64,000 nt of DNA, taken from the IMG/VR virus record IMGVR_UViG_3300044712_000810, positions 1-64,000 of that record. One strand, written 5' to 3'. The notes beneath the pieces were generated by a model. The model was not told the DNA's origin. It made no database searches and worked only from the letters and a program-made list of their open reading frames with translations. The translations under genes were made by a program, and so were the position numbers. Positions 9,755 through 58,473 of this stretch are shown one piece after another. How positions within the stretch are numbered: the stretch's first letter is position 1; each line of letters starts with the position of its first letter. Source of the stretch: a virus.

Positions 9755-9777
9755 GGGGGTCGAAAGGCCCCCTTTTT
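9755..9777 (+). terminator. Rho-independent terminator
   Basis: Seven-bp stem GGGGGTC/GGCCCCC with a GAAA loop and TTTTT. Confidence 0.85.
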
Positions 9778-9789
9778 AAGGAGTTAAAA

Positions 9790-37174: not shown

Positions 37175-37183
37175 CACAAGAAT

Positions 37184-37207
37184 GGGGGTGGAAACACCCC
37201 CATTTTT
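37184..37207 (+). terminator. Rho-independent terminator
   Basis: GGGGGTG-GAAA-CACCCCC followed by ATTTTT. Confidence 0.85.
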
Positions 37208-37222
37208 AATATTCTCTTTTTT

Positions 37223-37237
37223 CATATAGAAATAATA
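37223..37237 (+). promoter_or_regulatory. Putative promoter, type B box (rsr unit)
   Basis: CATATAGAAATAATA preceded by TTCTCTTTTTT; the only promoter-like box seen before the rsr and RNA-element region. Confidence 0.6.
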
Positions 37238-37244
37238 CCAATGC

Positions 37245-37359
37245 GCGAGTAACCGTGTCGCCAACTTTTGGTTACATGCGTAAACCATTGATGTGCAAAC
37301 ATCGATGGTTTTATTGCACAGTCCTCCTGTTTAATTTTAACAACCTTTGGGAGGTTTAA
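37245..37359 (+). promoter_or_regulatory. Structured 5' leader of the rsr gene
   Basis: About 115 bases of leader. A 12-bp hairpin AACCATTGATGT/ACATCGATGGTT is capped by a GCAA tetraloop (37283-37310), and GTAACC/GGTTAC form another stem upstream. CCTCC at about 37322 is complementary to the GGAGG ribosome binding site. Near the start codon AACCT/AGGTT pair around the GGGAGG sequence. This looks like a translational control leader, possibly bound by Rsr itself. Confidence 0.45.
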
Positions 37360-38982
37360 ATGAAGAAAGTCGTAAAATCAGTGGAAAAGGCAATTTACAA
37401 AAACCCAACAGCGACAGCAGACACTGTCAACAAACACGGCACAAAAGCTTGGACTCAGTCCGATAGCACTCGTGTCGATCAGATCATGATGACAGGTACA
37501 TTTGGAAACTCGTTCTACGCCTCCGGCGACGAACTTGTGAAAGATGCTATCGAAGTCATCGAACGCGTGGCAAAGAAAGATCCTGCGCTGCTTGCATCAA
37601 CCATCGTGAAGGGTCGTAATGACGGCTTCATCAGAACTGCACCGTTAATCGGTCTAACAGTTCTATCGATGCACGCTCCAGCTGAATTTCGTAAAATCTT
37701 CAACGATACCGTGAAAACCGGTAACGACCTTGAAGACTTCATGAAGTTCGCATCAACCATGCGTAAAGGATTCGGAACTGCAATCAAGAAAGCTATGTGG
37801 GGATGGCTGTTTGAAAAGGTAACACCTTTCTACGCAACCAAATACACAAAGCAAATCGCGAACGCAATTTCCGTTTCGCATCCAAGAACACTCGATCCTA
37901 TCTTCGATTACATCATGCAGCACACTGCTGGTAAATCGAGAAACTATGCGGCTGCTCTCAAAAAGTATCCTGCCCTTCGTGGTATGGAAGAAGCAAAGGT
38001 AGCAGTTCAAAACAAAGACTGGAAGAAAGCCCAGAAACTAATCGACGAGCACAGACTCGATCCGACTACTTTTCTTGGCATGGGAACAATGACAAAAGAT
38101 GTGTGGAAATCACTTTCTGCACAATTTGGTGTCATGGCATATCTCAAATACCTTAACAAGATCGTCCGCGAGGATGCTCTTGATCCTAAGGTAATGAGAG
38201 AAAAGCTAAAACCTGAAGTCCTGAACAAGGCAAAGGTTTTCCCATTCCGTCTTTACATCGCAAGAGAAAACATCCAGAACGCAACAGTTCGTGATCATCT
38301 CGCCCAAGTCCTCGACGACTACGGCAAGATTTACAACTGGGAATCTTGGGGTGACAAGCAATTTGTCATCGCACCAGACGTTTCTGGATCAATGGTTCAA
38401 GCTGTACGTGGATCTAAACTAACTCCAGCCACAGTTGCTGGTATGTTCAGTGGATTCCTGTACAAATTCATTCCAGGAAGTATTCTTCTTCCTTGGAGCA
38501 CTGAAGTTCGTCCGAACCTCGTGCGTCCTCGTCAGGACTCTGTTCTGACACATATCGAAAGTATTGCCCGTGCAAACGGCGGTGGAACAGCAATGGCTTC
38601 ACCGATCGATCACATGATCCGCAATAAGATCAAGTGTGACTACTTCATCGGAATCACCGATTCTGAAGAATGGTCTGCACCTGTGACCAGATATGCTTGG
38701 GGCGGACGTAGATCCGATGAAAGACAGTGGATTGATGCTTGGACTGAATACAGAAATAAAGTCAACAAGAATGCGAAAGCAATTCTTCTTCGTGTGGATG
38801 GATACCCAACACAGCCATTCGATGACAAAACAGCTAAAGAAAATGGAATTTACCAGATCTTCGGTTGGTCCGACAACGTACTCAAATACGTTGATTACGT
38901 GATCAATTCTGAAAAATATGTGGTAAAAGAAAAAGAAAAGAAAGTTGAAAAACTTGATAAATATGTAACTATCGAAAGATAG
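37360..38982 (+). CDS. rsr: Ro60 orthologue (Rsr): TROVE plus vWA domain RNA-binding protein
   Basis: A 540-residue Ro60/Rsr-type protein. The N-terminal TROVE module (about 20-320) has the family-like GNSFYASGDELVKDAIEVIE and helical HEAT-like repeats. The C-terminal von Willebrand A domain has a complete MIDAS site: D340-x-S342-x-S344 (APDVSGSM), T410 (GGGTAM) and D434 (GITDSEE). Ro60 proteins form rings that bind misfolded RNAs and Y RNAs; bacterial Rsr works with PNPase and is often encoded beside Y RNA and RtcB genes. Here an array of structured RNA elements, some tRNA-like, follows at once and rtcB lies 3.5 kb downstream. Codon use is fairly G+C-rich. Confidence 0.88.
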   Translation: MKKVVKSVEKAIYKNPTATADTVNKHGTKAWTQSDSTRVDQIMMTGTFGNSFYASGDELVKDAIEVIERVAKKDPALLASTIVKGRNDGFIRTAPLIGLTVLSMHAPAEFRKIFNDTVKTGNDLEDFMKFASTMRKGFGTAIKKAMWGWLFEKVTPFYATKYTKQIANAISVSHPRTLDPIFDYIMQHTAGKSRNYAAALKKYPALRGMEEAKVAVQNKDWKKAQKLIDEHRLDPTTFLGMGTMTKDVWKSLSAQFGVMAYLKYLNKIVREDALDPKVMREKLKPEVLNKAKVFPFRLYIARENIQNATVRDHLAQVLDDYGKIYNWESWGDKQFVIAPDVSGSMVQAVRGSKLTPATVAGMFSGFLYKFIPGSILLPWSTEVRPNLVRPRQDSVLTHIESIARANGGGTAMASPIDHMIRNKIKCDYFIGITDSEEWSAPVTRYAWGGRRSDERQWIDAWTEYRNKVNKNAKAILLRVDGYPTQPFDDKTAKENGIYQIFGWSDNVLKYVDYVINSEKYVVKEKEKKVEKLDKYVTIER

Positions 38983-38988
38983 TTTTCA

Positions 38989-39012
38989 GGTGGGAGTTAT
39001 TACACTCCCACC
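38989..39012 (+). terminator. Hairpin after rsr, no T run
   Basis: GGTGGGAGT/ACTCCCACC, 9-bp stem with loop TATTAC, 7 bases after the rsr stop codon. The missing T run means transcription may continue into the RNA array; it may instead be a processing or stability hairpin. Confidence 0.6.
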
Positions 39013-39032
39013 AACTACAAATTTCTAAATTT

Positions 39033-39099
39033 GCAAGGTATCAGTAATAAGTTTCAACGCACTGTTAAAGCCAAAAAGGCTTATTACATTAGTCCTTGC
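39033..39099 (+). ncRNA. Y-like RNA element E1
   Basis: First of ten related elements. Outer stem GCAAGG/CCTTGC, internal loop TATCA opposite ATTAGT, inner stem GTAATAAG/CTTATTAC, conserved TTCAACG after the inner 5' strand, short variable insert. Flanked by TT upstream and GCTT downstream. Described as Y-like because it follows the Ro60 gene; no match to a known RNA family is claimed. Confidence 0.7.
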
Positions 39100-39115
39100 G
39101 CTTCTTTCAAATTTT

Positions 39116-39338
39116 GGAAGGTATCAGAAAAACGTTCAACGCACATGAAATGCACCCGAGTTAACACTCGTGTAGGTTCGAGTCCTACCCTTGGCACCAA
39201 TCATGGGGACCATCTAGAGAGAAAGTCGAAAGACCGCTTCAAAAGATAGCAATTAAATTTGCAGGTACCCTCCAAATTTTGCCGAGGTGGCGGAATTGGT
39301 AGACGCAGGTAAAAACAATGTTTTTCATCAGTCCTTCC
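39116..39338 (+). ncRNA. Y-like RNA element E2 with permuted tRNA-like insert
   Basis: Outer stem GGAAGG/CCTTCC, internal loop TATCA opposite ATCAGT, inner stem GAAAAAC (39127)/GTTTTTC (39320), TTCAACG at 39135. The insert is a circularly permuted tRNA-like sequence of 170 bases including an 81-base spacer, annotated separately. AAAAACAAT separates its end from the inner stem, exactly as in E5. Confidence 0.75.
39141..39310 (+). tRNA. Circularly permuted tRNA-Leu-like gene (3' half first)
   Basis: The 3' half (39141-39199) has a long variable arm (CGAG/CTCG stem), T-arm GTAGG-TTCGAGT-CCTAC, acceptor strand CCTTGGC, discriminator A and encoded CCA. The 5' half (39281-39310) follows 81 bases later and starts GCCGAGG, pairing with CCTTGGC, then a D-arm (GCGG...GACGC) and AGGT. 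Joining AGGT to GCACATG restores an anticodon-like stem GGTGCA/TGCACC with loop CATGAAA. Acceptor and long variable arm look like tRNA-Leu, but no Leu anticodon is present and position 33 would be A, so it may be a tRNA mimic. Confidence 0.72.
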
Positions 39339-39347
39339 GACTTATTT

Positions 39348-39425
39348 TGTGGAGTAGAGTAGTCTGGTCTAACTCGTAGGTCTCATAAGCCTAGTACACA
39401 GGTTCAAATCCTGTCTCCGCAACCA
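39348..39425 (+). tRNA. tRNA with CAU anticodon (Met, or Ile2)
   Basis: 78-nt cloverleaf: acceptor TGTGGAG/CTCCGCA, anticodon stem TAGGT/GCCTA with loop CTCATAA, T-arm ACAGG-TTCAAAT-CCTGT, discriminator A, encoded CCA. The CAU anticodon could be elongator Met or, if modified to lysidine, Ile. Lies 9 bases after element E2. Confidence 0.88.
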
Positions 39426-39430
39426 CTTTT

Positions 39431-39522
39431 GAAAGGTAATCCGACAAGATTCAACGTTACCATTATACGTCTATCGGGCAACTCGACGCCCGATCGAAAC
39501 CGTCTTGTCATCTAGTCCTTTC
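39431..39522 (+). ncRNA. Y-like RNA element E3
   Basis: Outer stem GAAAGG/CCTTTC, internal loop TAATCC opposite ATCTAGT, inner stem GACAAGA/TCTTGTC, conserved TTCAACG. The insert carries its own 7-bp hairpin ATCGGGC/GCCCGAT. No tRNA similarity. Confidence 0.7.
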
Positions 39523-39530
39523 ACCCTTTT

Positions 39531-39591
39531 GCAAGGTAAATGAATCTGGATTCAACGGAAAACTGAAAACACCAGATTTAACAGTCCTTGC
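39531..39591 (+). ncRNA. Y-like RNA element E4
   Basis: Shortest copy (61 bases). Outer stem GCAAGG/CCTTGC, inner stem AATCTGG/CCAGATT, conserved TTCAACG and AGTCC, insert only about 16 bases. Confidence 0.7.
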
Positions 39592-39614
39592 ACTTAAAAT
39601 TTCTCACAACTTTT

Positions 39615-39755
39615 GAGAGGTAACCCCGAGTAGGTTCAACGCTATATGGAAGCCGGTGTCATCGGTTCGAATCCGATCTCCTCCATCACAAATCTTTTGG
39701 GGGAGTAGCTCAGTCTGGTAGAGCACGAAAAACAATCTGCTCAATTAGTCCTCTC
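39615..39755 (+). ncRNA. Y-like RNA element E5 with permuted tRNA-like insert
   Basis: Outer stem GAGAGG/CCTCTC, internal loop TAACCCC opposite AATTAGT, inner stem GAGTAG (39628)/CTGCTC (39737), TTCAACG at 39635. The insert is a permuted tRNA-like domain; AAAAACAAT (39728) precedes the inner 3' strand as in E2. Confidence 0.75.
39641..39727 (+). tRNA. Circularly permuted tRNA-like gene (3' half first), identity unclear
   Basis: The 3' half (39641-39685) has T-arm ATCGG-TTCGAAT-CCGAT, acceptor strand CTCCTCC and discriminator A, then TCA instead of CCA. After 13 bases the 5' half (39699-39727) starts GGGGGAG, pairing with CTCCTCC (one G-U), then TA and D-arm GCTC...GAGC. Joining CACG to GCTATATGG gives a perfect anticodon-like stem CGGCT/AGCCG with 7-base loop ATATGGA. 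The triplet in anticodon position (ATG) would be unusual, so amino-acid identity is left open; a tRNA mimic is possible. Confidence 0.7.
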
Positions 39756-39771
39756 AACTTTTAAAAATTTT

Positions 39772-39846
39772 GGTCTAGTAGCTTAATGGTAGAGCACCTG
39801 CCTGTCGAGCAGCAAGATGTCGGTTCAAATCCGATCTAGATCGCCA
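39772..39846 (+). tRNA. tRNA-Asp (GUC)
   Basis: 75-nt cloverleaf: acceptor GGTCTAG/CTAGATC, D-arm GCTT...GAGC, anticodon loop CTGTCGA (GTC), T-arm loop TTCAAAT, discriminator G typical of Asp, encoded CCA. One C-C mismatch at the top of the anticodon stem. Confidence 0.9.
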
Positions 39847-39852
39847 TCTTTT

Positions 39853-39969
39853 GCAAGGTAACCCCGTGTGGTTTCAACGGAAACTAACAAGTCATCAAAA
39901 CTGGTTACAGTAGGATTCGAAGCCTACAACACCTTCGGGTGAAACGAGCCACACAAACCATGTCCTTGC
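39853..39969 (+). ncRNA. Y-like RNA element E6
   Basis: Outer stem GCAAGG/CCTTGC, inner stem GTGTGG/CCACAC, TTCAACG, 3' core ends ATGTCC rather than AGTCC. The insert has a T-arm-like hairpin GTAGG/CCTAC with ATTCGAAG between and a CACC-TTCG-GGTG hairpin, but no matching D-arm or acceptor strands, so it is not called a tRNA. Confidence 0.65.
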
Positions 39970-39981
39970 ACTTAAAATTTT

Positions 39982-40067
39982 GGGGATGTTACACAAGCGG
40001 CAACGTGACCTGGCTGTAACCCAGGTGCCTTCGGGCTTCAGAGGTTCGAGTCCTCTCTTCCCCACCA
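39982..40067 (+). tRNA. tRNA-Tyr (GUA)
   Basis: 86-nt cloverleaf with long variable arm (TGCCTTCGGGCTTC): acceptor GGGGATG/CTTCCCC with one T-T mismatch, anticodon loop CTGTAAC in stem CCTGG/CCAGG, T-arm AGAGG-TTCGAGT-CCTCT, discriminator A, encoded CCA. Confidence 0.92.
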
Positions 40068-40085
40068 TTATAATTTGGAGATATT

Positions 40086-40481
40086 ATGTTTGATTTCAAT
40101 AAATGCGACAATCCAAAAAAGCAAGGTAATATTGGAATTGGTATCGCAATCGCATGGTTCGTAAAAAATGGTTGTACCGTATCTATTCCATTAACAGATT
40201 GTCAAGAATATGATCTTGTCATCGATGATATTAATGGAAAATTATACAAAGTTCAAGTTAAAACTACAACATTTAAAGAATTTAATACTTATAAAATTAA
40301 CTTAAAAACCTGTGGTGGCAATCAAAGTTTTAATACAATTAAAAAATTCGATAAAACGAAAGTAGATTTATTATTCATTGTTACCTGTGAAGGTGATATG
40401 TATTTAATTCCAACAAATAAAATAACACAAACAAATTGTTTAAAACTTGGTGAAAAATATCAAGACTGTAAAGTTACTTAA
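40086..40481 (+). CDS. PD-(D/E)XK homing endonuclease, I-Ssp6803I-like
   Basis: A 131-residue protein with the I-Ssp6803I-type core: GNIGIGIAIAWFVKNGCTVSIPL (helix then strand), YDLVIDD (catalytic D about 44) and VQVKTTT (Q-x-K, about 57-61). I-Ssp6803I is a tetrameric homing endonuclease of a tRNA-fMet group I intron, so a relative inside a tRNA and structured-RNA array is telling. Ribosome binding site TTTGGAGATATT. It may have helped spread or rearrange the array. An A+T-rich insert between elements E6/tRNA-Tyr and E7. Confidence 0.75.
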   Translation: MFDFNKCDNPKKQGNIGIGIAIAWFVKNGCTVSIPLTDCQEYDLVIDDINGKLYKVQVKTTTFKEFNTYKINLKTCGGNQSFNTIKKFDKTKVDLLFIVTCEGDMYLIPTNKITQTNCLKLGEKYQDCKVT

Positions 40482-40496
40482 AATTTCCACTTATTT

Positions 40497-40575
40497 GAAG
40501 GGTAAACCGACAAGTTTCAACGCTCATAACGTATTCGCGCCATCTTGCGAATCTAACTTGTCACGCAGTCCCTTC
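40497..40575 (+). ncRNA. Y-like RNA element E7
   Basis: Outer stem GAAGGG/CCCTTC, inner stem GACAAGT/ACTTGTC, conserved TTCAACG and AGTCC. The insert includes a short TTCGCG.../...CGCGAA-like hairpin but no tRNA parts. Confidence 0.7.
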
Positions 40576-40584
40576 AACTTTTTT

Positions 40585-40653
40585 GTGAGGTATCAGTAAT
40601 AAGTTTCAACGCCCCTTGCACGAGCCTAAAACGCTTATTACACAAGTCCTCAC
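40585..40653 (+). ncRNA. Y-like RNA element E8
   Basis: Outer stem GTGAGG/CCTCAC; inner stem GTAATAAG/CTTATTAC and loop TATCA are identical to E1 although outer stem and insert differ. TTCAACG and AGTCC conserved. Confidence 0.7.
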
Positions 40654-40672
40654 ATTTAAATTTCCAAATTTT

Positions 40673-40804
40673 GGAAGGTATCAAGAAACATCCAACGTTA
40701 ACTCCAAACCGGGGGTTATGGTTCAAGTCCATACATTTTGCCAAATAAGGCAGTGTAATGTAATGTAGCATACCGGTTCAACGCAGTTTCTTAAAAGTCC
40801 TTCC
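40673..40804 (+). ncRNA. Y-like RNA element E9 with degenerate permuted tRNA-like insert
   Basis: Outer stem GGAAGG/CCTTCC, inner stem AGAAAC/GTTTCT, 5' core motif ATCCAACG (variant of TTCAACG) and a TTCAACG copy on the 3' side. The insert has a T-arm TATGG-TTCAAGT-CCATA followed by a D-arm-like GTGTAATG...TAGCAT and ACCGG, again 3' half first, with CCGG complementary to AACCGG. Acceptor strands do not pair well, so the tRNA-like part is probably decayed. Confidence 0.6.
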
Positions 40805-40813
40805 ACATTTTTT

Positions 40814-40879
40814 GCGAGGTATTCTTCCAGGATTCAACGATCCTCTAAATCGAAAACGACCCTGGATATCAGTCCTCGC
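40814..40879 (+). ncRNA. Y-like RNA element E10
   Basis: Outer stem GCGAGG/CCTCGC, inner stem CCAGG/CCTGG, conserved TTCAACG and AGTCC. Last copy, 21 bases before the small zinc-protein gene at 40901. Confidence 0.7.
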
Positions 40880-40900
40880 GACTTTTTTAAGGAGAACCAC

Positions 40901-41077
40901 ATGTGTAAAGATGAATGCACTTGCGAAGTCAAGTGTCCAATCTGTCAAGAATTGATAGATAAACATGGTGGATTATATCCAAACCAAGAAACAATCAAAG
41001 CCATCGAAGAAGTTCGAAACGGCAAAACAAAAACATTTAATTCAGTTGAAGAGTTATTTAACGAATTACACAAATAA
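40901..41077 (+). CDS. Small zinc-finger protein with RelB-like tail
   Basis: A 58-residue ORF (TTAAGGAGAACCAC before ATG). The N-terminus has four or five closely spaced cysteines (MCKDECTCEVKCPICQE), a probable zinc site. The C-terminus NQETIKAIEEVRNGKTKTF plus NSVEELFNELHK strongly resembles the toxin-binding tail of RelB/DinJ-type antitoxins. No adjacent toxin gene is seen. It could neutralise a host toxin or be a regulator reusing the same tail. Confidence 0.65.
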   Translation: MCKDECTCEVKCPICQELIDKHGGLYPNQETIKAIEEVRNGKTKTFNSVEELFNELHK

Positions 41078-41079
41078 CC

Positions 41080-41100
41080 GGGTCTTCGGACCCAATTTTT
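41080..41100 (+). terminator. Rho-independent terminator
   Basis: GGGTC-TTCG-GACCC followed by AATTTTTATTTTT. Confidence 0.85.
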
Positions 41101-41115
41101 ATTTTTACCTAAAGT

Positions 41116-41130
41116 CATATAGAAATAGTA
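41116..41130 (+). promoter_or_regulatory. Putative promoter, type B box
   Basis: CATATAGAAATAGTA preceded by ACCTAAAGT; first of two boxes before the gene at 41283. Confidence 0.6.
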
Positions 41131-41168
41131 CAAATACCGAACTTTTTGTTTTTAATATTTGCAGTTTT

Positions 41169-41185
41169 TACATAGAAATATTTTA
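41169..41185 (+). promoter_or_regulatory. Putative promoter, second type B-like box
   Basis: TACATAGAAATATTTTA, 39 bases downstream of the previous box start-to-start spacing 53. Confidence 0.4.
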
Positions 41186-41282
41186 TTAGAAGTATTGATT
41201 TATCAATACGACAAGATATGTAGTTCTTTGGATTTTGGCTCTCTCAAGGCGCATATCTTGTTGTTTTACTTTAGGAGGATTC

Positions 41283-41552
41283 ATGTCAATTACGCGTAGA
41301 GAAGTAACAAAAACTGTTATTGAGATGACGGATGTAACTTGTGATATTTGTGGTAAAACATATACTTTTGATGCAGATAAAAAACATGAAAATGATGATT
41401 GGATTGAAACGCAAGAATTTCATTATATAAGTTTTCGAGGCGGCTACGGCTCCATATTTGGAGACGGTGATACTGTAACCTGTGATATCTGTCAACATTG
41501 TTTAAAAGACAAGTTGGGAGAATATCTCAAAATCAATGAGGGAGATCTTTAA
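41283..41552 (+). CDS. Small two-CxxC zinc protein
   Basis: An 89-residue protein from the ATG at 41283 (AGGAGGATTC upstream). CDICGK (about 19-24) and TCDICQHC (about 70-77) form a probable zinc-binding pair around a strand-rich middle. A similar architecture (CDVCGK and LCTEHC) is found at 53893. Function unknown. Confidence 0.7.
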   Translation: MSITRREVTKTVIEMTDVTCDICGKTYTFDADKKHENDDWIETQEFHYISFRGGYGSIFGDGDTVTCDICQHCLKDKLGEYLKINEGDL

Positions 41553-41579
41553 TTGAAAAAACTAAACCTGCCAGATCCC

Positions 41580-41645
41580 GGAGTCTAGGTCCTATCAGGA
41601 CAGGACTCCTCTGCGTCCAACAACTCAGATAGGAGATACCGTCCT
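41580..41645 (+). promoter_or_regulatory. Structured leader of the HNH gene (possible RBS switch)
   Basis: Nested hairpin GGAGTC/GACTCC around GTCCT-ATC-AGGAC. The sequence TCCTATC at 41590-41596 is a perfect complement to GATAGGA at 41628-41634, which includes the ribosome binding site. ATAGGA can also pair with TCCTAT at the start codon (7-base loop). The alternatives would hide or free the start site. Confidence 0.5.
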
Positions 41646-42173
41646 ATGAATTTCGTAATTGTATTAAACGCTAACTACGAAATACACCAGAAGGTTAGCG
41701 TAAAACAATGTCTAAGTATGATCAGGCGTCAAGTTGTTGAAGTTATTAAATACTCTGACAAAGTTATTACTACATGCAAAGAGAAGATTCAAATTCCTCT
41801 TATAGTACGTTTAATAACTGTAGTTAGAAAAGTATTTAAAAACAAGATACAATTCACAAAGAAAAACCTTTTTGTACGCGACCAATACATGTGTGCGTAC
41901 TGTGCCCAAAAATTCGAAAGTAAACAACTTTCGGTCGATCATATCCTTCCGGAATCGAGAGGAGGTCCGACTTCTTGGGAAAACTGTGTAACAGCCTGTG
42001 TCAAGTGTAACAACAAGAAAGACAACAAGACACCAAGAGAAGCCGGAATGTTTCTCAAATTCAAACCATTCGAACCAACCATAGCCGAATTCGTGAAACT
42101 AAAAGTAACACAAGACGGACTTGAAAAGTTTGTTAAAGAAATATTTGACCAACTTATGGACGAATGCAAATAA
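41646..42173 (+). CDS. HNH endonuclease
   Basis: A 175-residue protein. The C-terminal half is a classic HNH nuclease: FVRDQYMCAYCAQKF (zinc CxxC), LSVDHILPESRGG (catalytic H), WENCVTACVKCNNKK (N and CxxC). The N-terminal 70 residues are strand/helix mixed and unrecognised. Ribosome binding site TAGGAGATACCGTCCT within the structured leader. Could be a free-standing homing endonuclease. Confidence 0.88.
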   Translation: MNFVIVLNANYEIHQKVSVKQCLSMIRRQVVEVIKYSDKVITTCKEKIQIPLIVRLITVVRKVFKNKIQFTKKNLFVRDQYMCAYCAQKFESKQLSVDHILPESRGGPTSWENCVTACVKCNNKKDNKTPREAGMFLKFKPFEPTIAEFVKLKVTQDGLEKFVKEIFDQLMDECK

Positions 42174-42179
42174 CAACGT

Positions 42180-42201
42180 GGGGGCGAAAGCCCCCATTTT
42201 T
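42180..42201 (+). terminator. Rho-independent terminator
   Basis: GGGGGC-GAAA-GCCCCC followed by ATTTTTAG. Confidence 0.85.
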
Positions 42202-42217
42202 AGCTGGAGACAAAATC

Positions 42218-42511
42218 ATGTCAAAAACACTAAGTTTTAACAAACCCGAAGATTCAATTTACATTGATGATGTAAAAAGTGAAGATTTTATAACATGTCA
42301 TAATTATGTATTATGCATACAGGATGACACTAAAAAATATATATGGTTTGATGTAGAATCAGCATCTGTTAGTCCTAGAACATTTAATACTATCGAAGAT
42401 GCCGTAATATTTTTAAAAAATAAACATGTTGATGATGAAGAAAAAGTTCTCGTGCATAATAAGCATGATGAATATTTCAGCGAATTAATAAGAATTATAG
42501 AATCACTATAA
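42218..42511 (+). CDS. Hypothetical protein upstream of rtcB
   Basis: A 97-residue acidic protein, starting at the ATG at 42218 after TGGAGACAAAATC; the longer frame crosses the terminator and is rejected. Family unknown. 14 bases before rtcB. Confidence 0.65.
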   Translation: MSKTLSFNKPEDSIYIDDVKSEDFITCHNYVLCIQDDTKKYIWFDVESASVSPRTFNTIEDAVIFLKNKHVDDEEKVLVHNKHDEYFSELIRIIESL

Positions 42512-42525
42512 ACTTGGAGTCAACC

Positions 42526-43629
42526 ATGTCGTGTCTGGATAAATGCGCATTTCTTATTCCATATACTCAAATAGAGGCAGGTGCACAAACACAATTGTGC
42601 AACTATTTAAAAGAACCATTTTGCCTCCGCGCAGCTGTAATGCCAGACATCCATACCGGATATGCGTTACCAGTTGGTGCGGTTGTATTGCTCGAAGGAG
42701 TAATATCACCAGCAGCAGTTGGTGTTGATATAGGTTGCGGAATGTGTTGTATTCGTACAGATGTTCCGATCAAACATATCAAAGGAAAAGAAGAAAAACT
42801 ATTTAAACAAATATATTCTACTATTCCAGTTGGATTTGGTAGTCATGCAAAAAAAAGAGACTATCCTGATTTCAAATCAGCAATACTGGATAAAAAACTG
42901 GATGCAGCAATAAATTTAAAATTAAAAGAACAACTTGGAACTCTCGGTGGTGGGAATCACTTTATTGAAATTGGTGAAACACGAGAAGGAAATATAGGAA
43001 TTACTATTCATAGTGGATCACGTAATGCTGGAAAGCAAATATGTGATCATTACTGTGCATTAGCTAAAAAAATTCATACTGAATTAAAAGGTGACTTTCT
43101 ATTCTTCGATCGTGATGAAGGAAAGGCATACTTTCAAGATATGAACTTTATGTTATCATATGCATTAGAAAATCGTTTAAATATGATGGTTGACATTCTT
43201 GATATACTTGGGTTGGATCAAAATCTACTCAAGGAAATCATTAATGAGAATCATAATCATGCCGAAGATCTAGATGGAAAGATTCTGCATCGTAAAGGTG
43301 CAACACCAGCAGCAAAAGACCAATTGGGTGTTATCCCAGGTAATATGCGCGACGGTGTATATATAACTAAAGGTCTTGGCAACGACAAATATCTGTCAAG
43401 TGCAAGTCATGGAGCCGGTCGTAAAGGTTCTAGAACTTGGGCAAAACAAAAAGATACAGTCGAAACATTTGCAAAACTAATGAATGGTATTGTCGCGAAA
43501 GTTGACAAACATACATTGGATGAAGCACCTTGGGCATATAAAAAGATCGAGGATGTAATTAAAGCACAAGAAGGAATTGTGGTTGATATTATCGATCACA
43601 TTAGACCAATCATTAACATCAAAGGATAG
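42526..43629 (+). CDS. rtcB: RNA-splicing ligase RtcB
   Basis: A 367-residue RtcB: joins RNA 3'-phosphate or 2',3'-cyclic phosphate ends to 5'-OH ends using GTP and manganese. Signatures are MPDIHTGYALPVGAV, VGVDIGCGMC (metal-binding), GTLGGGNHFIE, HSGSRNAGK, HRKGATPA and SASHGAGRKGSR, the last carrying the histidine that is guanylylated. Start ATG at 42526 with TTGGAGTCAACC. It lies 1.6 kb after the permuted tRNA-like elements and near rsr; this gene grouping parallels bacterial rsr-Y RNA-rtcBA operons. No RtcA or archease is seen. Confidence 0.94.
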   Translation: MSCLDKCAFLIPYTQIEAGAQTQLCNYLKEPFCLRAAVMPDIHTGYALPVGAVVLLEGVISPAAVGVDIGCGMCCIRTDVPIKHIKGKEEKLFKQIYSTIPVGFGSHAKKRDYPDFKSAILDKKLDAAINLKLKEQLGTLGGGNHFIEIGETREGNIGITIHSGSRNAGKQICDHYCALAKKIHTELKGDFLFFDRDEGKAYFQDMNFMLSYALENRLNMMVDILDILGLDQNLLKEIINENHNHAEDLDGKILHRKGATPAAKDQLGVIPGNMRDGVYITKGLGNDKYLSSASHGAGRKGSRTWAKQKDTVETFAKLMNGIVAKVDKHTLDEAPWAYKKIEDVIKAQEGIVVDIIDHIRPIINIKG

Positions 43630-43947: not shown

Positions 43948-44073
43948 AATATGAAGAAACTATCGAAATCTAAATTGAAAAATAGGGCATCAAGATTGAA
44001 AGCAGTAGTAGGCAGTCCAATGTCTATTGATATGGAATATTATGAGGACACTGTAAAATATCAAGGAGACAAA

Positions 44074-45204
44074 ATGGATCAGGGCGAAGATCTGAATGTT
44101 GGTCTTACGTTTGGCGCTGACTTCGGTTATCCTGTTTATGGCGTTGTTGCCAAAGGTAAAACTGAAGAACTTCTGCGTCATGCAAACAAGACCGGTCTTT
44201 CCGAACACGAAGAATTCAACATGGTCATTGATGGAAAGAAACGTAGTGACGTATTTGAGATTTTTCGCAAATATGGTCGTTGCATGGACTTCCAAAAAAG
44301 AACTTTCGTCTGTATGGCGGAAGATGCTTACATCGGTGTTAACTTCACCGATCGTGATTCCTATAGTGGAATCTATGTTTCCTTTGACGGAAACGATAAA
44401 AACAAATTGATTGAACTTCGCAATCAAATTTATGCAGAACTTAAAGAATTTAAAAAAGTGTGCATTAACTGTGAAGTCAATTGGTATTATGCCAAAGGAT
44501 GCAATCAAGAACTTCAGTCTCAACAGATTCAGGAAGTTCTTGATGATAATGTTTATCCCGAAGCATATCCTTATATTGAAAATCTTGATGAATTCATCAA
44601 TGATTATCTTGCCGGTGATGAACAAGTTCTCATCTTCCTGGGTCCTCCCGGAACCGGTAAAACTCGTTTGATCCGCTACATTCTTAATCGTATGGTCGTC
44701 AAACAAATTGAAAAACAAGGAGTAGGTCTTAGCCGTTATGGCGATGCCTATTTCGAAGATGACGATGATGTAAATATCATGTATACTACCGATGCGAAAG
44801 TATTGGAACATGAAGAGTTCATTGTGGATTTCCTTACCAATAGGCACTCCGCAATGGTTCTTGAAGATATTGACTTTAACCTTCGTCCTCGCATGGATAA
44901 CAACACTTCCATGTATAAACTTCTTGCCTCCAGTGATGGTCTTCTGACCAACCGTGGACGTAAGATGATTATTAGTACCAACGTTGATAGCGTTGCGAAA
45001 ATCGACGAAGCTCTTATTCGTCCCGGACGTTGCTACGGCATCGTTCAATTCCAGAAACTTAATCCCGAACAGGCAAATACGTTTCTGAAAGTTATTGGCA
45101 GTGACGAAACTGTTACTGTTGAAAAAACCATTGCCGAACTTTACGCTATGAAGAAACATACTCGTAGCGGTTCTGGCAACAATATTCGCAAAATCGGATT
45201 CTAG
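44074..45204 (+). CDS. AAA+ ATPase, BCS1/FtsH-like
   Basis: About 376 residues from the ATG at 44074, which has AAGGAGACAAA; the frame is open to an ATG at 43951 without a ribosome binding site, and those 41 codons are A+T-rich whereas the rest is more G+C-rich. Walker A is GPPGTGKTR (about 189), Walker B MVLEDIDF, sensor 1 ISTNVDS, arginine region ALIRPGRC. The RPGRC motif places it with classical AAA proteins such as BCS1. The N-terminal half is unknown. Next but one is a vWA protein gene. Confidence 0.8.
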   Translation: MDQGEDLNVGLTFGADFGYPVYGVVAKGKTEELLRHANKTGLSEHEEFNMVIDGKKRSDVFEIFRKYGRCMDFQKRTFVCMAEDAYIGVNFTDRDSYSGIYVSFDGNDKNKLIELRNQIYAELKEFKKVCINCEVNWYYAKGCNQELQSQQIQEVLDDNVYPEAYPYIENLDEFINDYLAGDEQVLIFLGPPGTGKTRLIRYILNRMVVKQIEKQGVGLSRYGDAYFEDDDDVNIMYTTDAKVLEHEEFIVDFLTNRHSAMVLEDIDFNLRPRMDNNTSMYKLLASSDGLLTNRGRKMIISTNVDSVAKIDEALIRPGRCYGIVQFQKLNPEQANTFLKVIGSDETVTVEKTIAELYAMKKHTRSGSGNNIRKIGF

Positions 45205-45210
45205 ATTATA

Positions 45211-45237
45211 GCGGCCCATATACTGGGCCGCATTTTT
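45211..45237 (+). terminator. Rho-independent terminator
   Basis: GCGGCCCA/TGGGCCGC with loop TATAC, followed by ATTTTTATTT. Confidence 0.8.
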
Positions 45238-45251
45238 ATTTTTATATGTTT

Positions 45252-45266
45252 CATATAGAAATAATC
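45252..45266 (+). promoter_or_regulatory. Putative promoter, type B box
   Basis: CATATAGAAATAATC before the gene at 45285. Confidence 0.6.
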
Positions 45267-45284
45267 ATGTTATGAGGAGGCATT

Positions 45285-45497
45285 ATGAGAACAATAACCA
45301 TGGAAAATGGAAGCATGTACTATGATGAAGAATTTAATTCACTAATCATAGCCAAAAATCTTGAAAATGGCAATGTTTCCGTTTTTACACCATGTACAGA
45401 CTGGGATATAACGTTTAGGTTAGGGCGTCCACAATTTTTTACAACTGTAATAACACGAGAACAATTTAACACGTACATTAGCATGGAGGACTCATGA
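45285..45497 (+). CDS. Small hypothetical protein
   Basis: A 70-residue protein with A+T-rich codons, GAGGAGGCATT upstream, coupled by a 4-base overlap to the G+C-rich vWA gene. Family unknown. Confidence 0.65.
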   Translation: MRTITMENGSMYYDEEFNSLIIAKNLENGNVSVFTPCTDWDITFRLGRPQFFTTVITREQFNTYISMEDS

Positions 45498-46903
45498 CAG
45501 CAAGAGACTGGATTGACGTTTGCATCTCGTTTGACACAACAGGAAGCATGTATCCCTGCCTGGGCGAAGTTCGCTCCAAGATCACCAAAATGGTGGACAC
45601 CCTGTTTTCGAAGATCCCGAATCTTCGTATCGCAATCATCGCTCATGGCGACTACTGCGATGCAGGCCGTCCTTACACCGTTAAGGTGATGGATTTCACC
45701 AACGAAAAGAACACCATCGTCAACTTCGTGAACAAGGTCGAACCGACCGGCGGCGGTGATGCACCTGAATGCTACGAACTGGTTCTCAAAACTGCGAGAA
45801 CTCTTCTCTCGTGGCGTTCCGGCACCTCCAAGTCCATCGTCATGATTGGCGACGACAATCCGCACGGACCTACCTATCCGCAGAACGTCGACAAGATCGA
45901 CTGGCAGAACGAATGCGGCCTGCTGAAAGAAGCCAACGTCAAGGTCTATGGCATTCATGCCATGCCTGGTTGCCGTCGTCACAGCGAAACCTTTTACAGG
46001 GCAATCGCTGCAAGAACCGAAGGCACCTATCTGACCCTGGACCAGTTCGCAGCGATCGAACAGCTCATTCTCGGCATCTGCTACAAACAGGACAGCGTCG
46101 AGAAACTCAACGAATACGTCGAAGTCATCAAGGTCGGTGCCGGTCGTAGCACCCTGCGTAACATCGCAGCACTCACCGGAACCACCTTCGACGAGGCCGA
46201 CTATTCAAAGAAGCACATGCCCAAGGGCCTCGTGCCGGTTCCTTCCGGCCGCTTCCAGGTCTTCACCGTTCCATCGAAGATGGCAATCAAACAGTTCGTC
46301 GTCGATCGCGGAATCCTTTTCAAGAAGGGCCGTGGCTTCTACGAGCTCACCAAGTCCGAAACCGTCCAGCAGTACAAAGAAGTCATTCTGCAGGACAAGA
46401 TCACTGGCGAATTCTACGCCGGTGCTGCCGCTCGCGAAATGCTCGGCCTGCGCCCGCAGATCGAAGGAACTTCTGGTGGCATCCACGAGAAGCTTCGTCC
46501 TGTCGATCTGGACAAATACCGCGTGTTCATCCAGAGCACCTCGGTAAACCGCGCTCTCGTCGCCGGATCTGGCTTCCTTTACGAAGTCGAAGACTGGGAC
46601 AAGAAGGGAGAGACTCTCGAAGTCAAGGAAACCATTCCTGTCGTGGTCGGAAAAACTGCCAAAGCAACCGCCAAGGCTCCGACCAAGGCGACCACCAAGA
46701 CCCCTGCCAAGGCCCCGGCCAAAAGCAGAACGAAACCCACCGTGGTTCACGCCAAGATCACCGGCTTCGTGGTCAAGATCGAAGACGACGGCAAGATCAA
46801 CATCGCAAACGCCTCCGGCGAAAAGCCTTTCATGACCATCGCCGCCGAACACAACTTGGCATCCGCTCTGCGCAAGATCGCAGAAGTCGGAGAATTCAAG
46901 TAA
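45494..46903 (+). CDS. von Willebrand A-domain protein, G+C-rich
   Basis: A 469-residue protein. The N-terminal vWA domain has a MIDAS motif DTTGSM (about 14-19) with PTGGGDAPE and IGDDNPHG at the other metal-site positions. A middle domain of unknown type follows. An Ala/Lys/Pro/Thr-repeat linker (about 378-415) leads to a short C-terminal domain. Codons are strongly G+C-ending and contrast with the gene it overlaps. vWA domains mediate metal-dependent protein contacts, often beside AAA+ ATPases as in MoxR/RavA systems; an AAA+ gene lies just upstream. Confidence 0.8.
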   Translation: MTARDWIDVCISFDTTGSMYPCLGEVRSKITKMVDTLFSKIPNLRIAIIAHGDYCDAGRPYTVKVMDFTNEKNTIVNFVNKVEPTGGGDAPECYELVLKTARTLLSWRSGTSKSIVMIGDDNPHGPTYPQNVDKIDWQNECGLLKEANVKVYGIHAMPGCRRHSETFYRAIAARTEGTYLTLDQFAAIEQLILGICYKQDSVEKLNEYVEVIKVGAGRSTLRNIAALTGTTFDEADYSKKHMPKGLVPVPSGRFQVFTVPSKMAIKQFVVDRGILFKKGRGFYELTKSETVQQYKEVILQDKITGEFYAGAAAREMLGLRPQIEGTSGGIHEKLRPVDLDKYRVFIQSTSVNRALVAGSGFLYEVEDWDKKGETLEVKETIPVVVGKTAKATAKAPTKATTKTPAKAPAKSRTKPTVVHAKITGFVVKIEDDGKINIANASGEKPFMTIAAEHNLASALRKIAEVGEFK

Positions 46904-54242: not shown

Positions 54243-54761
54243 ATGGCAAAACGTCAGTATGTTTTATCAGATCGATTTTTTATATCTGTTAACGTTTTTG
54301 ATAATGGGCACCAAACAACGTCAAGAATAAATGGAACTAAAATATTTCACCATGAATCATTAAGAATAAATGAATCTGGTGATGTTTTTTATAATTTTAC
54401 ACCAAAACAAATATATCAACTATATAAAAAGCACTGTGATTGTCCTTCTGGTAACCTTATTGGATGGAAATTCGCTGGAATTGGTGGAAGAATAAAAATG
54501 AAAATACTAATTCCAAATAGTGCACAAAGACTAAACGTTATGTTTACAAATGAATGCAGAGCTGATAAAATTCAAATAATAAGTATGTGGGATCAAAAAT
54601 TTAGAAAAATAACAGAATGCACAAGTTGGTTCGACAAAAAAATTAAATACAAATGTGGAAATTCATATTACTGTAATGATTTTAACAATAACCCATTAAA
54701 TCAATATTATGCAAAAGGATTTCACTTCTATTTAACATTAAGAGATCTTTTGGAGGCATAG
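54243..54761 (+). CDS. Hypothetical protein
   Basis: A 172-residue basic protein with scattered cysteines, ribosome binding site TTGGAGGACATTT, coupled by 1 base to the next gene. Family unknown. Confidence 0.7.
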   Translation: MAKRQYVLSDRFFISVNVFDNGHQTTSRINGTKIFHHESLRINESGDVFYNFTPKQIYQLYKKHCDCPSGNLIGWKFAGIGGRIKMKILIPNSAQRLNVMFTNECRADKIQIISMWDQKFRKITECTSWFDKKIKYKCGNSYYCNDFNNNPLNQYYAKGFHFYLTLRDLLEA

Positions 54762-55102
54762 TGTCTTATTTAATGTTTCTCGATGATGAAAGATTTCCAA
54801 AGACAGATCGAGATTGGATACTTGCTCGATCTTTTAAAGATGCCATATATTATATGGAACGAAAAGGTTGTCCTTCTTACATTTCATTTGATAATGATCT
54901 TGGAGAAGGCAAATTTGAAGGGATTCATTTAGCACATTGGATGGTTGAAAAAGACATGAATGAGAATCAAACATTTTTTCCTCCAGATTTCGACTTCAAC
55001 GTCCATTCGGCCAACACTCAGGCCGGACCCAGAATTGAATCACTGCTTCGTCAATATTTGACGTATAGAAAACAACTGCTTCATCCGGAGGACCCAAAAT
55101 GA
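54761..55102 (+). CDS. cREC-like (cyclic-phosphate processing receiver) domain protein
   Basis: A 113-residue protein matching the small receiver-like family named cyclic-phosphate processing receiver domain: MFLDDERFPK, SFKDAIYYMERKGCPSYISFDNDLGEGKFEG, then FDFNVHSANTQAGPRIESLL. Acidic residues in LDDER and FDNDLG mimic the receiver active site. The family is predicted (not proven here) to act on 2',3'-cyclic phosphate ends in RNA repair, which would suit a phage with RtcB. GTG start with GGAGGCATA. Confidence 0.65.
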   Translation: MSYLMFLDDERFPKTDRDWILARSFKDAIYYMERKGCPSYISFDNDLGEGKFEGIHLAHWMVEKDMNENQTFFPPDFDFNVHSANTQAGPRIESLLRQYLTYRKQLLHPEDPK

Positions 55103-56472: not shown

Positions 56473-58473
56473 TTAGTGGACGATGATAAATACGTTAATG
56501 CGTTCGATGGCTCTGATTGGTGTAATGTCAATGTATACGTTTAATTCAGAACGAACATCATCGAACTTAACGTTTGTTGTAAATGATTTAAGTACAGAAT
56601 ATCTTTCAAGAGCAGGGTTTTCAAGGAATGCTGCAAGGAAGTTATCAACACGGAATTTAGCTTGATTGATCCAGTATTGTGTTGCCTTTCTTTGTAAGAT
56701 ATCTTTAAGTAATGTTGGAATTACTTTACGAATATAAGCAACGAATTTAGCAACGTGAGCACGTTTCAGAATAGACAGACGTTTCCATGTTGTAAGTTGT
56801 GTAAGGAAGTATTTACCTTGTGGTTCAACGATTGTGAAGTTAAGTTCACGATCTTGTAAATCACCACGTTCTGTATGGTTCGCACGATATGCGAGTTCAA
56901 TTGGCTCTTGAATTGCACCTTTTTCGATACCTGCAACTGGTTCAGCAATAAAGTATGCGCCGTCACAATATAAGTGTCTTTCAATAGCATGATAGATAGG
57001 AGTCATGTAAATGTATTCACCAGTGTAAATATCGAAAATCTTTCTATATTGAACATATAACATAGATGTCCAAACGTTCCAATCGTACTCATTTAAACGA
57101 GCATCAAGGTCTTGTTTGTATTTCTTGTGCATTGGATAAATGTCACCAAGATGAATACAATCTTGACGATAGTCAGCTAATGCTCTAGCTGAATTTTGTA
57201 CTGCTGGTGGGAAACCACCGGATACAATATAGTCTGGTTCATACCATGGGTATACGGCTTCACCAAGCTGTTCGATAGAACCGTCAATACTTGTACCATC
57301 AGAATATGGACCAACACCTTGATATGCTTGTGCAACAAGTTTAAATACAGTATCACTTGGAGCATATGTACCAGAACCTGACATATAAAGTCCAGTACCA
57401 TCGGTACCATTTTCAAGTTGTACTCCACCTTTAGCAACGTTGTTTGTTCCTAATGGAGAAACTGTACTAAGGGCAAGCATAACTTGTAAACGACGATCTT
57501 CGGCATCTGTACTTGTAATAAGTTCATCAGCCGCAGCAGCGGACTTACAACGCATAAGTTCTGATTCTTCATTAATAACATCTTCGATATAAAGAATACG
57601 TCCAGAACTAATGTCACGAATGACTTCGTTCTTTGGTGTTCTACGAATTAATGATACTTCCCATGGACCTTCAACTAATGATTCAGTTCCATCATCATTG
57701 ATTTGGGAAACCCAAATATCCATGAAACAGTACTTATAAAGGACTTCACCTTTGTCATCTGTAAACATTCTTTCAAGTTGAGTGTTACGAACACCCTTAA
57801 CTTTAAGTCTGTTATAATATGCACCAGCACCATTTGCATAGAAATAGTAAACAACGTTTTGTTCAATTTCTGGCAAATCTTGATCTGGTTGATCGATATG
57901 TAATCCCCATGGTAATGCTTGATAAGGAACTACTTTGTTAATTGGTGAAGTTGTTGATGGATTAGTATATTTACGATCAAGAGTAAGTATATAACCTGAA
58001 GTATCATCCTTTGAAACTACTTGGACTGCTTCTGCCATACTTACAGTTGGTGGGTAAATCCAATCACCAATGTCAACTGCACTATAACCGTTAAAAGTTT
58101 GACAATTCACGGTGTTACTATTTTGTGTGAAAATGAAATCTTCTGTAACTGTTTGGAAGTTTGTATTCTTTTGAATTGCGGTATTAGCTAAATAAGAGTC
58201 TTCTGGAGTAATACGAATAGCAAGAACTTTTCCAGTATATTCTAACGCTTTGTCCAAACAATAATGTGAAGGACTTGTACGTCTATAGTTTGGTTTACCA
58301 AACAGTTTTTGGAATTGTGCTCTTGAATTTACTTGAACGACTCTATTATGTGGACCTCTATCGCAAAGAATAACACCAAAAACAGTACGACCGATTTCTA
58401 AAGTAGGAGCAACATAAGAAGCATCTTCAATAGTAACATATACTGCCGGTTCTCTTCTATCTGTTACTGGCAT
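56473..58473 (-). CDS. Contractile tail sheath protein
   Basis: A 666-residue sheath protein, showing that the phage is a myovirus. The N-terminus REPAVYVTIEDASYVAPTLEIGRTVFGVI and NSRAQFQKLFGKPNYRRTSPSHYCLDKALEYTGKVLAIRI is typical. The C-terminal YIRKVIPTLLKDILQRKATQYWINQAKFRVDNFLAAFL and final DVRSELNVYIDITPIRAIERINVFI match the conserved sheath end domain. The 666-residue length suggests an added variable outer domain. Confidence 0.93.
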   Translation of the reverse strand: MPVTDRREPAVYVTIEDASYVAPTLEIGRTVFGVILCDRGPHNRVVQVNSRAQFQKLFGKPNYRRTSPSHYCLDKALEYTGKVLAIRITPEDSYLANTAIQKNTNFQTVTEDFIFTQNSNTVNCQTFNGYSAVDIGDWIYPPTVSMAEAVQVVSKDDTSGYILTLDRKYTNPSTTSPINKVVPYQALPWGLHIDQPDQDLPEIEQNVVYYFYANGAGAYYNRLKVKGVRNTQLERMFTDDKGEVLYKYCFMDIWVSQINDDGTESLVEGPWEVSLIRRTPKNEVIRDISSGRILYIEDVINEESELMRCKSAAAADELITSTDAEDRRLQVMLALSTVSPLGTNNVAKGGVQLENGTDGTGLYMSGSGTYAPSDTVFKLVAQAYQGVGPYSDGTSIDGSIEQLGEAVYPWYEPDYIVSGGFPPAVQNSARALADYRQDCIHLGDIYPMHKKYKQDLDARLNEYDWNVWTSMLYVQYRKIFDIYTGEYIYMTPIYHAIERHLYCDGAYFIAEPVAGIEKGAIQEPIELAYRANHTERGDLQDRELNFTIVEPQGKYFLTQLTTWKRLSILKRAHVAKFVAYIRKVIPTLLKDILQRKATQYWINQAKFRVDNFLAAFLENPALERYSVLKSFTTNVKFDDVRSELNVYIDITPIRAIERINVFIIVH

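What the first reader, a model, noticed from the sequence alone, without database searches (positions are those of the whole stretch)
37223..43629. Phage RNA-repair island: Rsr, Y-like RNAs, tRNAs and RtcB
Rsr (TROVE plus vWA with intact MIDAS), the RNA array and RtcB lie in one 6.4 kb stretch on one strand. In Salmonella and other bacteria rsr, yrlBA and rtcBA form an RNA-repair operon, so the phage arrangement is a compact parallel. Inference: the phage protects, degrades or repairs tRNAs, for example against host anticodon nucleases, or uses RtcB to mature permuted tRNAs. The cREC-like protein (54761) and phosphoesterase (34928), families that may act on cyclic phosphates, could assist.
Basis: partly seen in the sequence, partly recalled or inferred. 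Interest (0 to 1): 0.85.

Follow-up and report, generated by a model that had tools for sequence, protein, structure and literature searches.

The report
Phage Ro60 protein with Y-RNA array
A very large phage carries its own Ro60-like RNA-binding ring protein followed directly by ten related small "Y RNA" genes (two of them enclosing a rearranged tRNA) mixed with tRNA genes, with a separate RNA-repair ligase gene nearby: a known kind of RNA-handling system, here with an unusually large and varied set of RNA adaptors.

Summary
In a 314.8-kb IMG/VR phage record, rsr (37360-38982) is a full-length TROVE ring plus vWA protein with intact MIDAS. From 49 nt downstream, 39032-40881 holds ten Y-RNA units, interleaved with tRNA-Met, -Asp, -Tyr and a PD-(D/E)XK gene. 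Every unit forms the same two-stem head; 110/110 tested pairs are kept through extensive compensatory change. The head motif occurs nowhere else in the genome. Units B and E enclose circularly permuted tRNAs; E matches Rfam YrlA full length (36 bits, below cut-off). RtcB (42526-43629) keeps its active-site residues.

The 'RNA-repair operon' reading is only partly supported. Terminator-like hairpins separate rtcB from rsr plus array, RtcA was not found, and of 80 phage rsr loci none has rtcB within 5 kb. What is conserved is rsr with same-strand YrlA-type RNAs, usually just upstream (47/80 phage, 50/80 bacterial loci). The permuted tRNAs are best read as YrlA-type tRNA mimics, not RtcB substrates. 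Best explanation: a phage Ro60-Y RNA ribonucleoprotein with an expanded adaptor set, acting in RNA quality control or tRNA defence, RtcB acting in parallel. Kind known; variant apparently new.

The parts
37178..37207 (+). terminator-like hairpin upstream of rsr (13 pairs plus T tract)
37360..38982 (+). rsr: Ro60/TROVE ring plus vWA domain, MIDAS intact
39032..39100 (+). Y-RNA unit A (simple loop)
39114..39340 (+). Y-RNA unit B, loop holds a circularly permuted class II (Leu-like) tRNA body
39141..39199 (+). unit B: 3' part of the permuted tRNA (anticodon-arm-like hairpin, variable arm, T arm, acceptor, ACCA)
39281..39310 (+). unit B: 5' part of the permuted tRNA (acceptor, D arm); acceptor strands joined by an 85-nt loop
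39348..39425 (+). tRNA-Met(CAT)
39430..39523 (+). Y-RNA unit C (loop with strong hairpin)
39530..39592 (+). Y-RNA unit D (simple loop)
39613..39757 (+). Y-RNA unit E, holds a permuted class I tRNA body; Rfam RF02553 YrlA match at 39627-39746
39641..39688 (+). unit E: 3' part of the permuted tRNA (loop ATATGGA; ends ATCA, CCA lost)
39699..39727 (+). unit E: 5' part of the permuted tRNA
39772..39846 (+). tRNA-Asp(GTC)
39852..39970 (+). Y-RNA unit F; T-arm-like hairpin (39910-39927) and UUCG-capped helix, no full tRNA body
39982..40067 (+). tRNA-Tyr(GTA)
40086..40481 (+). PD-(D/E)XK endonuclease family gene inside the array
   Evidence: PF11645, E 6e-18
40495..40577 (+). Y-RNA unit G
40584..40654 (+). 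Y-RNA unit H (close paralogue of A)
40671..40805 (+). Y-RNA unit I; T-arm-like hairpin and closed acceptor-like helix, no full tRNA body
40812..40881 (+). Y-RNA unit J
41080..41093 (+). terminator-like hairpin after the array
41646..42173 (+). HNH endonuclease gene between array and rtcB
42178..42197 (+). terminator-like hairpin upstream of rtcB
42526..43629 (+). rtcB: RNA-splicing ligase; DIGCG, GGGNHF, IHSGSR, NHNHAE and SHGAGR motifs present

Best explanation
The locus encodes a phage Ro60-Y RNA ribonucleoprotein with an expanded adaptor set. Shown by sequence: a Ro60-fold protein and, directly downstream on the same strand and bounded by terminator-like hairpins, ten RNAs with one conserved two-stem head and different distal modules. 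Six distal modules are simple loops or hairpins, two (B, E) are whole permuted tRNA bodies, two (F, I) are reduced T-arm-like modules. Inferred from Ro60/Rsr biology: Rsr binds the shared head, and the Y RNA gates the ring and tethers an effector. The tRNA-like modules would recruit tRNA-binding or PNPase-type host enzymes, as YrlA does, or act as tRNA decoys; the other modules would recruit other partners. During infection the particle would survey and remodel structured RNA, tRNA above all. RtcB, in a separate apparent transcription unit, would reseal tRNAs cut to 2',3'-cyclic-phosphate and 5'-OH ends, acting in the same battle but not as part of the Rsr particle and not to splice the permuted tRNAs.
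For: Rsr fold and family. Residues aligned to Ro60 K170 and H187, known to me as Y-RNA contacts, are conserved. Ten units with covarying heads, present only here in the genome. Unit E matches YrlA along its full length; YrlA is a known circular permutation of tRNA (PMC11472068). YrlA-type permuted bodies lie on the rsr strand, mostly just upstream of rsr: 82 in 47/80 viral loci (0 on the other strand, 0 in shuffles) and 77 in 50/80 bacterial loci. Terminator-like hairpins bound rsr plus array and exclude rtcB. RYPER and tether roles of YrlA: PMC8394870. In Listeria phage CKA15 an Rsr-like protein occurs in purified virions, and three highly transcribed nearby regions were suggested to be Y RNAs (PMC12282133).
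Against: No RNA or binding data exist for this phage, and its host is unknown. The Y-head sequence differs from RF02553 and nine of ten units reach no Rfam match, so binding to this Rsr is inferred from linkage and structure. The third Y-contact residue of Ro60 (R174, from memory) is not clearly aligned. No effector partner is identified.
Confidence: 0.62

Rival explanations
1. Integrated tRNA-repair island: Rsr and Y RNAs hold or sort cleaved tRNAs and RtcB reseals them, defeating host anticodon nucleases.
For: rsr and rtcB lie 3.5 kb apart here; P100 has a Ro-like gene 1.3 kb from rtcB plus an Rnl-type ligase and phosphoesterase; Pumpernickel has both among tRNAs. The rsr-yrlBA-rtcBA operon responds to tRNA fragments (PMC7790460). 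Phage tRNAs rescue phages from tRNA-cutting defences (PMC11555353).
Against: rtcB lies behind two terminator-like hairpins. Most TROVE-bearing phages examined lack RtcB, and 0/80 viral loci have it within 5 kb. RtcA not found.
Confidence: 0.25
2. tRNA decoys: the permuted tRNA modules present a tRNA body with an anticodon-like arm to host tRNA-cutting toxins and sequester them.
For: A complete composite anticodon arm (5-bp stem, 7-nt loop) can be formed in unit E, with U33 and purine 37, and in many phage YrlA-type RNAs. PMC7790460 proposes that YrlA's tRNA-like domain may competitively inhibit the anticodon nuclease.
Against: The same arm is found in bacterial YrlA-type RNAs (48/94 bodies), so it is not a phage counter-measure as such. 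Only two of ten units carry a tRNA body. Unit B's loop lacks U33 in its best fold.
Confidence: 0.2
3. Permuted tRNA genes: the Y head joins the two ends, the head is cut out, RtcB ligates positions 28^29, and RNase P plus 3' processing release a functional tRNA.
For: Re-joining the halves gives cloverleafs that ARAGORN calls (B: Ser-TGA, E: His-ATG; native order 0, shuffles 0/300). B keeps an encoded CCA and an 85-nt spacer. RtcB is encoded nearby.
Against: With free choice of junction ARAGORN also calls many spurious tRNAs, so that test is not specific. B's best loop (CATGAAA) lacks U33 and its body is Leu-like; E has lost CCA (ATCA) and has A34. Similar RNAs exist in phages without RtcB. The genome already has a broad tRNA set including three Leu tRNAs.
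Confidence: 0.04
4. Passive clutter: tRNA-cluster repeats spread by recombination and homing nucleases, with no Rsr-linked function.
For: PD-(D/E)XK and HNH genes interrupt the region; phage tRNA clusters are recombinogenic (general knowledge).
Against: Heads are kept by compensatory changes in all ten units, and the array sits directly beside rsr and nowhere else.
Confidence: 0.03

Closest known systems
Bacterial Rsr-YrlA systems (Rfam RF02553; Salmonella YrlA structure 6CU1; RYPER with PNPase)
   Same: Ro60-type ring protein beside RNAs made of a two-stem head plus a circularly permuted tRNA-like module; E aligns to YrlA over its full length
   Different: ten units in one locus, most without a tRNA module; divergent head sequence (GGUA / AGUCC with UUCAACG and GAAAAC-like flanks) that Rfam misses; array downstream of rsr
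Salmonella rsr-yrlBA-rtcBA RNA repair operon
   Same: the rsr, Y RNA and rtcB parts occur together on one strand
   Different: no RtcA found; rtcB behind terminator-like hairpins and an HNH gene; RtcR not tested; interleaved tRNA genes
Listeria Pecentumvirus (P100, CKA15) Ro-like / RtcB / tRNA region
   Same: Ro-like gene, rtcB and tRNA cluster within about 10 kb; abundant ncRNAs suggested to be Y RNAs
   Different: the protein belongs to the DUF2828/DUF7788 branch (15% identity); no units with this head motif were recognised there
Actinophage Ro-like genes in tRNA clusters (Magritte, Trina, Mareelih, Sparky, GMA2, Comrade)
   Same: TROVE rsr beside YrlA-type RNAs and tRNAs; several Y RNAs per locus in Magritte and Trina
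   Different: RtcB absent; fewer recognised units; different head sequences
Thermus phage phiLo Ro60 (PDB 9l5y)
   Same: phage Ro60-fold protein with solved structure
   Different: no YrlA hit or RtcB found in that genome

Membership tests
Ro60/Rsr (TROVE) proteins | TROVE HEAT-repeat ring plus vWA domain | tested here: met
Ro60/Rsr (TROVE) proteins | MIDAS motif | tested here: met
   D340, S342, S344, T410, D434 invariant in 21 sequences
Ro60/Rsr (TROVE) proteins | Y-RNA-contact residues (Ro60 K170, R174, H187; from memory) | tested here: inconclusive
   K and H positions conserved, R174 not clearly aligned
Y RNAs | long stem from pairing of the ends, interrupted by a conserved internal loop | tested here: met
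   ten units, 110/110 pairs with compensatory change
Y RNAs | genomic linkage to rsr | tested here: met
   49 nt between the rsr stop and unit A
Y RNAs | binding to Rsr | not testable with these tools
   needs pull-down or gel shift
YrlA (RF02553) | score at or above the Rfam gathering cut-off | tested here: not met
   E scores 36.2 bits against 69; no other unit matches
YrlA (RF02553) | T arm, closed acceptor helix and D arm in permuted order inside the Y loop | tested here: met
   units B and E only
RtcB ligases | catalytic Cys, Asp, Asn and His motifs | tested here: met
   DIGCG 72-76, GGGNHF 145, IHSGSR 165, NHNHAE 246, SHGAGR 298
rsr-yrl-rtcBA RNA repair operon | single transcription unit with rtcB | tested here: not met
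   two terminator-like hairpins between array and rtcB (consensus scan only)
rsr-yrl-rtcBA RNA repair operon | RtcA cyclase | tested here: not met
   no PF01137 match in the 315-kb record, which may be incomplete
rsr-yrl-rtcBA RNA repair operon | RtcR sigma-54 activator | not tested
   -
Circularly permuted tRNA genes (red algal / archaeal type) | 3' half before 5' half with pairing acceptor strands | tested here: met
   units B and E
Circularly permuted tRNA genes (red algal / archaeal type) | functional anticodon loop and CCA end after rejoining | tested here: not met
   B lacks U33 in its best fold; E lacks CCA and has A34

The most novel reading that the evidence does not exclude
The Y head is a splicing scaffold: units B and E (and similar RNAs elsewhere) are permuted pre-tRNAs whose ends are brought together by the Rsr-bound Y stem, cut, and ligated at 28^29 by the phage RtcB, making YrlA-type RNAs a missing link between tRNA splicing and Y RNAs.
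Probability: 0.04. Interest if true: 0.92.

Novelty: new variant of a known kind. Interest (0 to 1): 0.6.

Why it matters
Ro60-Y RNA particles are conserved from bacteria to humans, yet what phages use them for is unknown. This locus offers ten natural adaptor variants for one ring protein, including whole tRNA modules next to reduced ones. That makes it a test bed for how Y RNAs choose effectors and how tRNA-like modules are gained and reduced. It also shows that Rfam misses divergent phage Y RNAs, and that some phage 'tRNA' annotations overlap Y RNAs.

Tried and rejected
- Tight rsr-array-rtcB synteny as a general rule: rejected.
- Permuted tRNAs as functional tRNAs: disfavoured. The ARAGORN de-permutation test proved non-specific once junctions were free, so it is not used as proof.
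- The anticodon arm as a phage-specific feature: rejected after bacterial loci showed it too.
- Exact-pattern scan of IMG/VR for the head motif: two chance hits in coding sequence.
- Searching IMG/VR with the window's own Rsr: no relatives. A mixed nine-protein alignment was too divergent to search with.
- Generic two-stem scan in P100 and in GC-rich actinobacterial loci: too noisy to count arrays.
- T4 Rnl1 family search: uninformative, its control rang nowhere.
- Plain MAFFT alignment of the units shifts the 3' arm, so arms were aligned by structure in a script instead.
Full report
WHAT IS THERE. The window is bases 1-64000 of a 314,837-bp IMG/VR virus record. rsr (37360-38982) encodes a 540-aa protein whose best solved relatives are human and Xenopus Ro60. 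An AlphaFold model built on 21 relatives (pLDDT 77.5, pTM 0.76) matches Ro60 1yvp with TM-score 0.79-0.81, and also D. radiodurans Rsr 2nvo and the Ro60 of Thermus phage phiLo 9l5y. MIDAS residues D340, S342, S344, T410 and D434 are invariant in the alignment.

THE ARRAY. Between 39032 and 40881 lie ten units with a common head: outer stem ending in GG, internal loop starting UA, inner stem of 6-11 bp, then (U)UCAACG (UCCAACG in I), a variable distal module, usually a GAAAAC-like stretch, the inner stem's other strand, and AGUCC (UGUCC in F) closing the outer stem. An unbiased two-stem search returns exactly ten units sharing this motif, against at most five in shuffled loci. The motif occurs nine times in the 315-kb genome, all here and all forward. 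Each unit's arms pair with themselves at 110 of 110 tested positions, while arms of different units pair at 7.0 of 11; inner-stem positions show three or four pair types. The inner stem was chosen as best of several offsets, so the outer stem is the cleaner evidence; it too covaries. Nine units folded alone have z-scores of -2.4 to -5.8. Three ordinary tRNAs (Met, Asp, Tyr) and a PD-(D/E)XK gene are interleaved. Asp, Tyr and Met also have copies in the main tRNA cluster at 275-306 kb.

THE tRNA-LIKE UNITS. Unit E matches Rfam YrlA across positions 1-114 with 36.2 bits, E 1e-5 in a 2.1-kb search; this is below the gathering score of 69. Its loop contains T arm, acceptor strand, short loop, acceptor strand and D arm, the circular permutation of tRNA already established for YrlA (PMC11472068). 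Unit B has the same order with a Leu-like class II body, an encoded ACCA and an 85-nt acceptor loop. A scan for such bodies finds only B and E in the window (one weak hit in the main tRNA cluster). F and I keep only a T-arm-like hairpin and a capped helix. In E, two bases after the D arm plus a three-pair hairpin give a perfect five-pair anticodon-like stem with a seven-base loop, U33 and a purine at 37. The same rule fits many YrlA-type RNAs near rsr in other phages (56 of 91 bodies, U33 in 45 of the 56) and in bacteria (48 of 94, U33 in 39 of the 48). So this arm is not phage-specific. RF02553 does not model it: in E it falls in an insert. I could not read the primary YrlA papers, so I do not claim it is unreported.

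RtcB AND ITS LINKAGE. RtcB is intact by its motifs. A consensus scan finds terminator-like hairpins upstream of rsr (37178-37207), after the array (41080-41093) and before rtcB (42178-42197); such matches are not proof, but the region has 14 against 6.0 +/- 2.6 in shuffles. RtcA was not found in the record. Nine named phages with TROVE proteins were checked: only Pumpernickel has RtcB. In 80 IMG/VR rsr loci no RtcB ORF lies within 5 kb, and in 80 bacterial loci two do. The IMG/VR phage with the closest RtcB found (56% identity) has 22 tRNAs around rtcB, and its rsr lies about 23.5 kb away on the other strand. In Listeria phage P100 a Ro-like protein of the DUF2828/DUF7788 branch lies 1.3 kb from rtcB beside the tRNA cluster; homologues of that protein occur in 671 phage records. 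So the neighbourhood recurs, but it is not a fixed module.

WHAT IS CONSERVED. rsr with YrlA-type RNAs on the same strand. Short-loop permuted bodies number 82 in 47 of 80 viral loci, with none on the opposite strand and none in shuffles; 69 of them fall in the 4-5 kb bin, i.e. within 1 kb upstream of rsr in most loci. Bacterial loci give 77 in 50 of 80. Several phages have more than one Y RNA beside rsr: Trina by the unbiased scan, Magritte by motif and folding, and IMG/VR locus L072 with about five by reading plus two YrlA matches. Ten, with a shared divergent head, is the largest set seen here, but I could not count arrays reliably in GC-rich genomes.

MECHANISM. From Ro60/Rsr biology (PMC8394870; PMC7790460), the head should bind Rsr and the distal module should tether an effector. 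I infer interchangeable adaptors for one ring protein, two of them full tRNA mimics. RtcB plausibly repairs tRNAs cut by host nucleases in parallel; phage tRNAs themselves can rescue phages from such nucleases (PMC11555353). The splicing idea for B and E is disfavoured: B has lost U33 in its best fold, E has lost CCA, similar RNAs exist without RtcB, and the de-permutation test is not specific.

VERDICT. Observation confirmed and enlarged; interpretation partly supported. A phage TROVE protein in an RNA-repair context is published (PMC7824862), and Y RNAs in mycobacteriophages are cited as known (PMC12282133). The new part is the large, diversified, covarying Y-RNA array with a head that Rfam does not recognise.

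Noticed in passing
L053 4347-4423 (Magritte) and L054 7652-7740 (Mareelih): Annotated phage tRNAs (Arg-tct, Leu-gag) overlap YrlA-type Y RNAs, so they are probably misannotated.
   Followed up: partly
L072 9693-10396: About five Y RNAs in tandem directly downstream of an Mx1-like rsr; one (9771-9905) seems to enclose a tRNA in normal order (9812-9883).
   Followed up: partly
viral loci L085-L164 and bacterial loci L165-L244: Many YrlA-type RNAs can form a complete anticodon-like arm with U33, which RF02553 does not model.
   Followed up: partly
L067 127-3674: In the IMG/VR phage with the closest RtcB, rsr sits beside a JAB-like gene (sub-threshold) and a ThiF/E1-like gene.
   Followed up: no
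window 43951-46903: AAA+ ATPase gene followed by a vWA-domain gene, resembling MoxR-vWA chaperone pairs described in jumbo phages.
   Followed up: no
window 54761-55102: cREC (cyclic-phosphate processing receiver) gene confirmed by Pfam, E 8e-20.
   Followed up: partly
window 40901-41077: 58-aa ORF at the array's end with a weak RelB-antitoxin match (E 3e-4, just below the cut-off).
   Followed up: no
L048 16748-16822 (genome 290747): Suppressor-type tRNA with anticodon CTA in the main tRNA cluster; possible amber recoding in this phage.
   Followed up: no
L058 6419-6475: Pistol ribozyme match (56.8 bits, above cut-off) inside the tRNA cluster of Gordonia phage GMA2.
   Followed up: no
L073 9801-9923: tRNA match with about 50 extra bases, possibly an intron-containing tRNA, next to an rsr gene.
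   Followed up: no
window 57729-57824: ARAGORN tRNA-Thr call lies on the minus strand inside a 666-aa ORF and is absent from the Rfam scan; probably spurious.
   Followed up: partly
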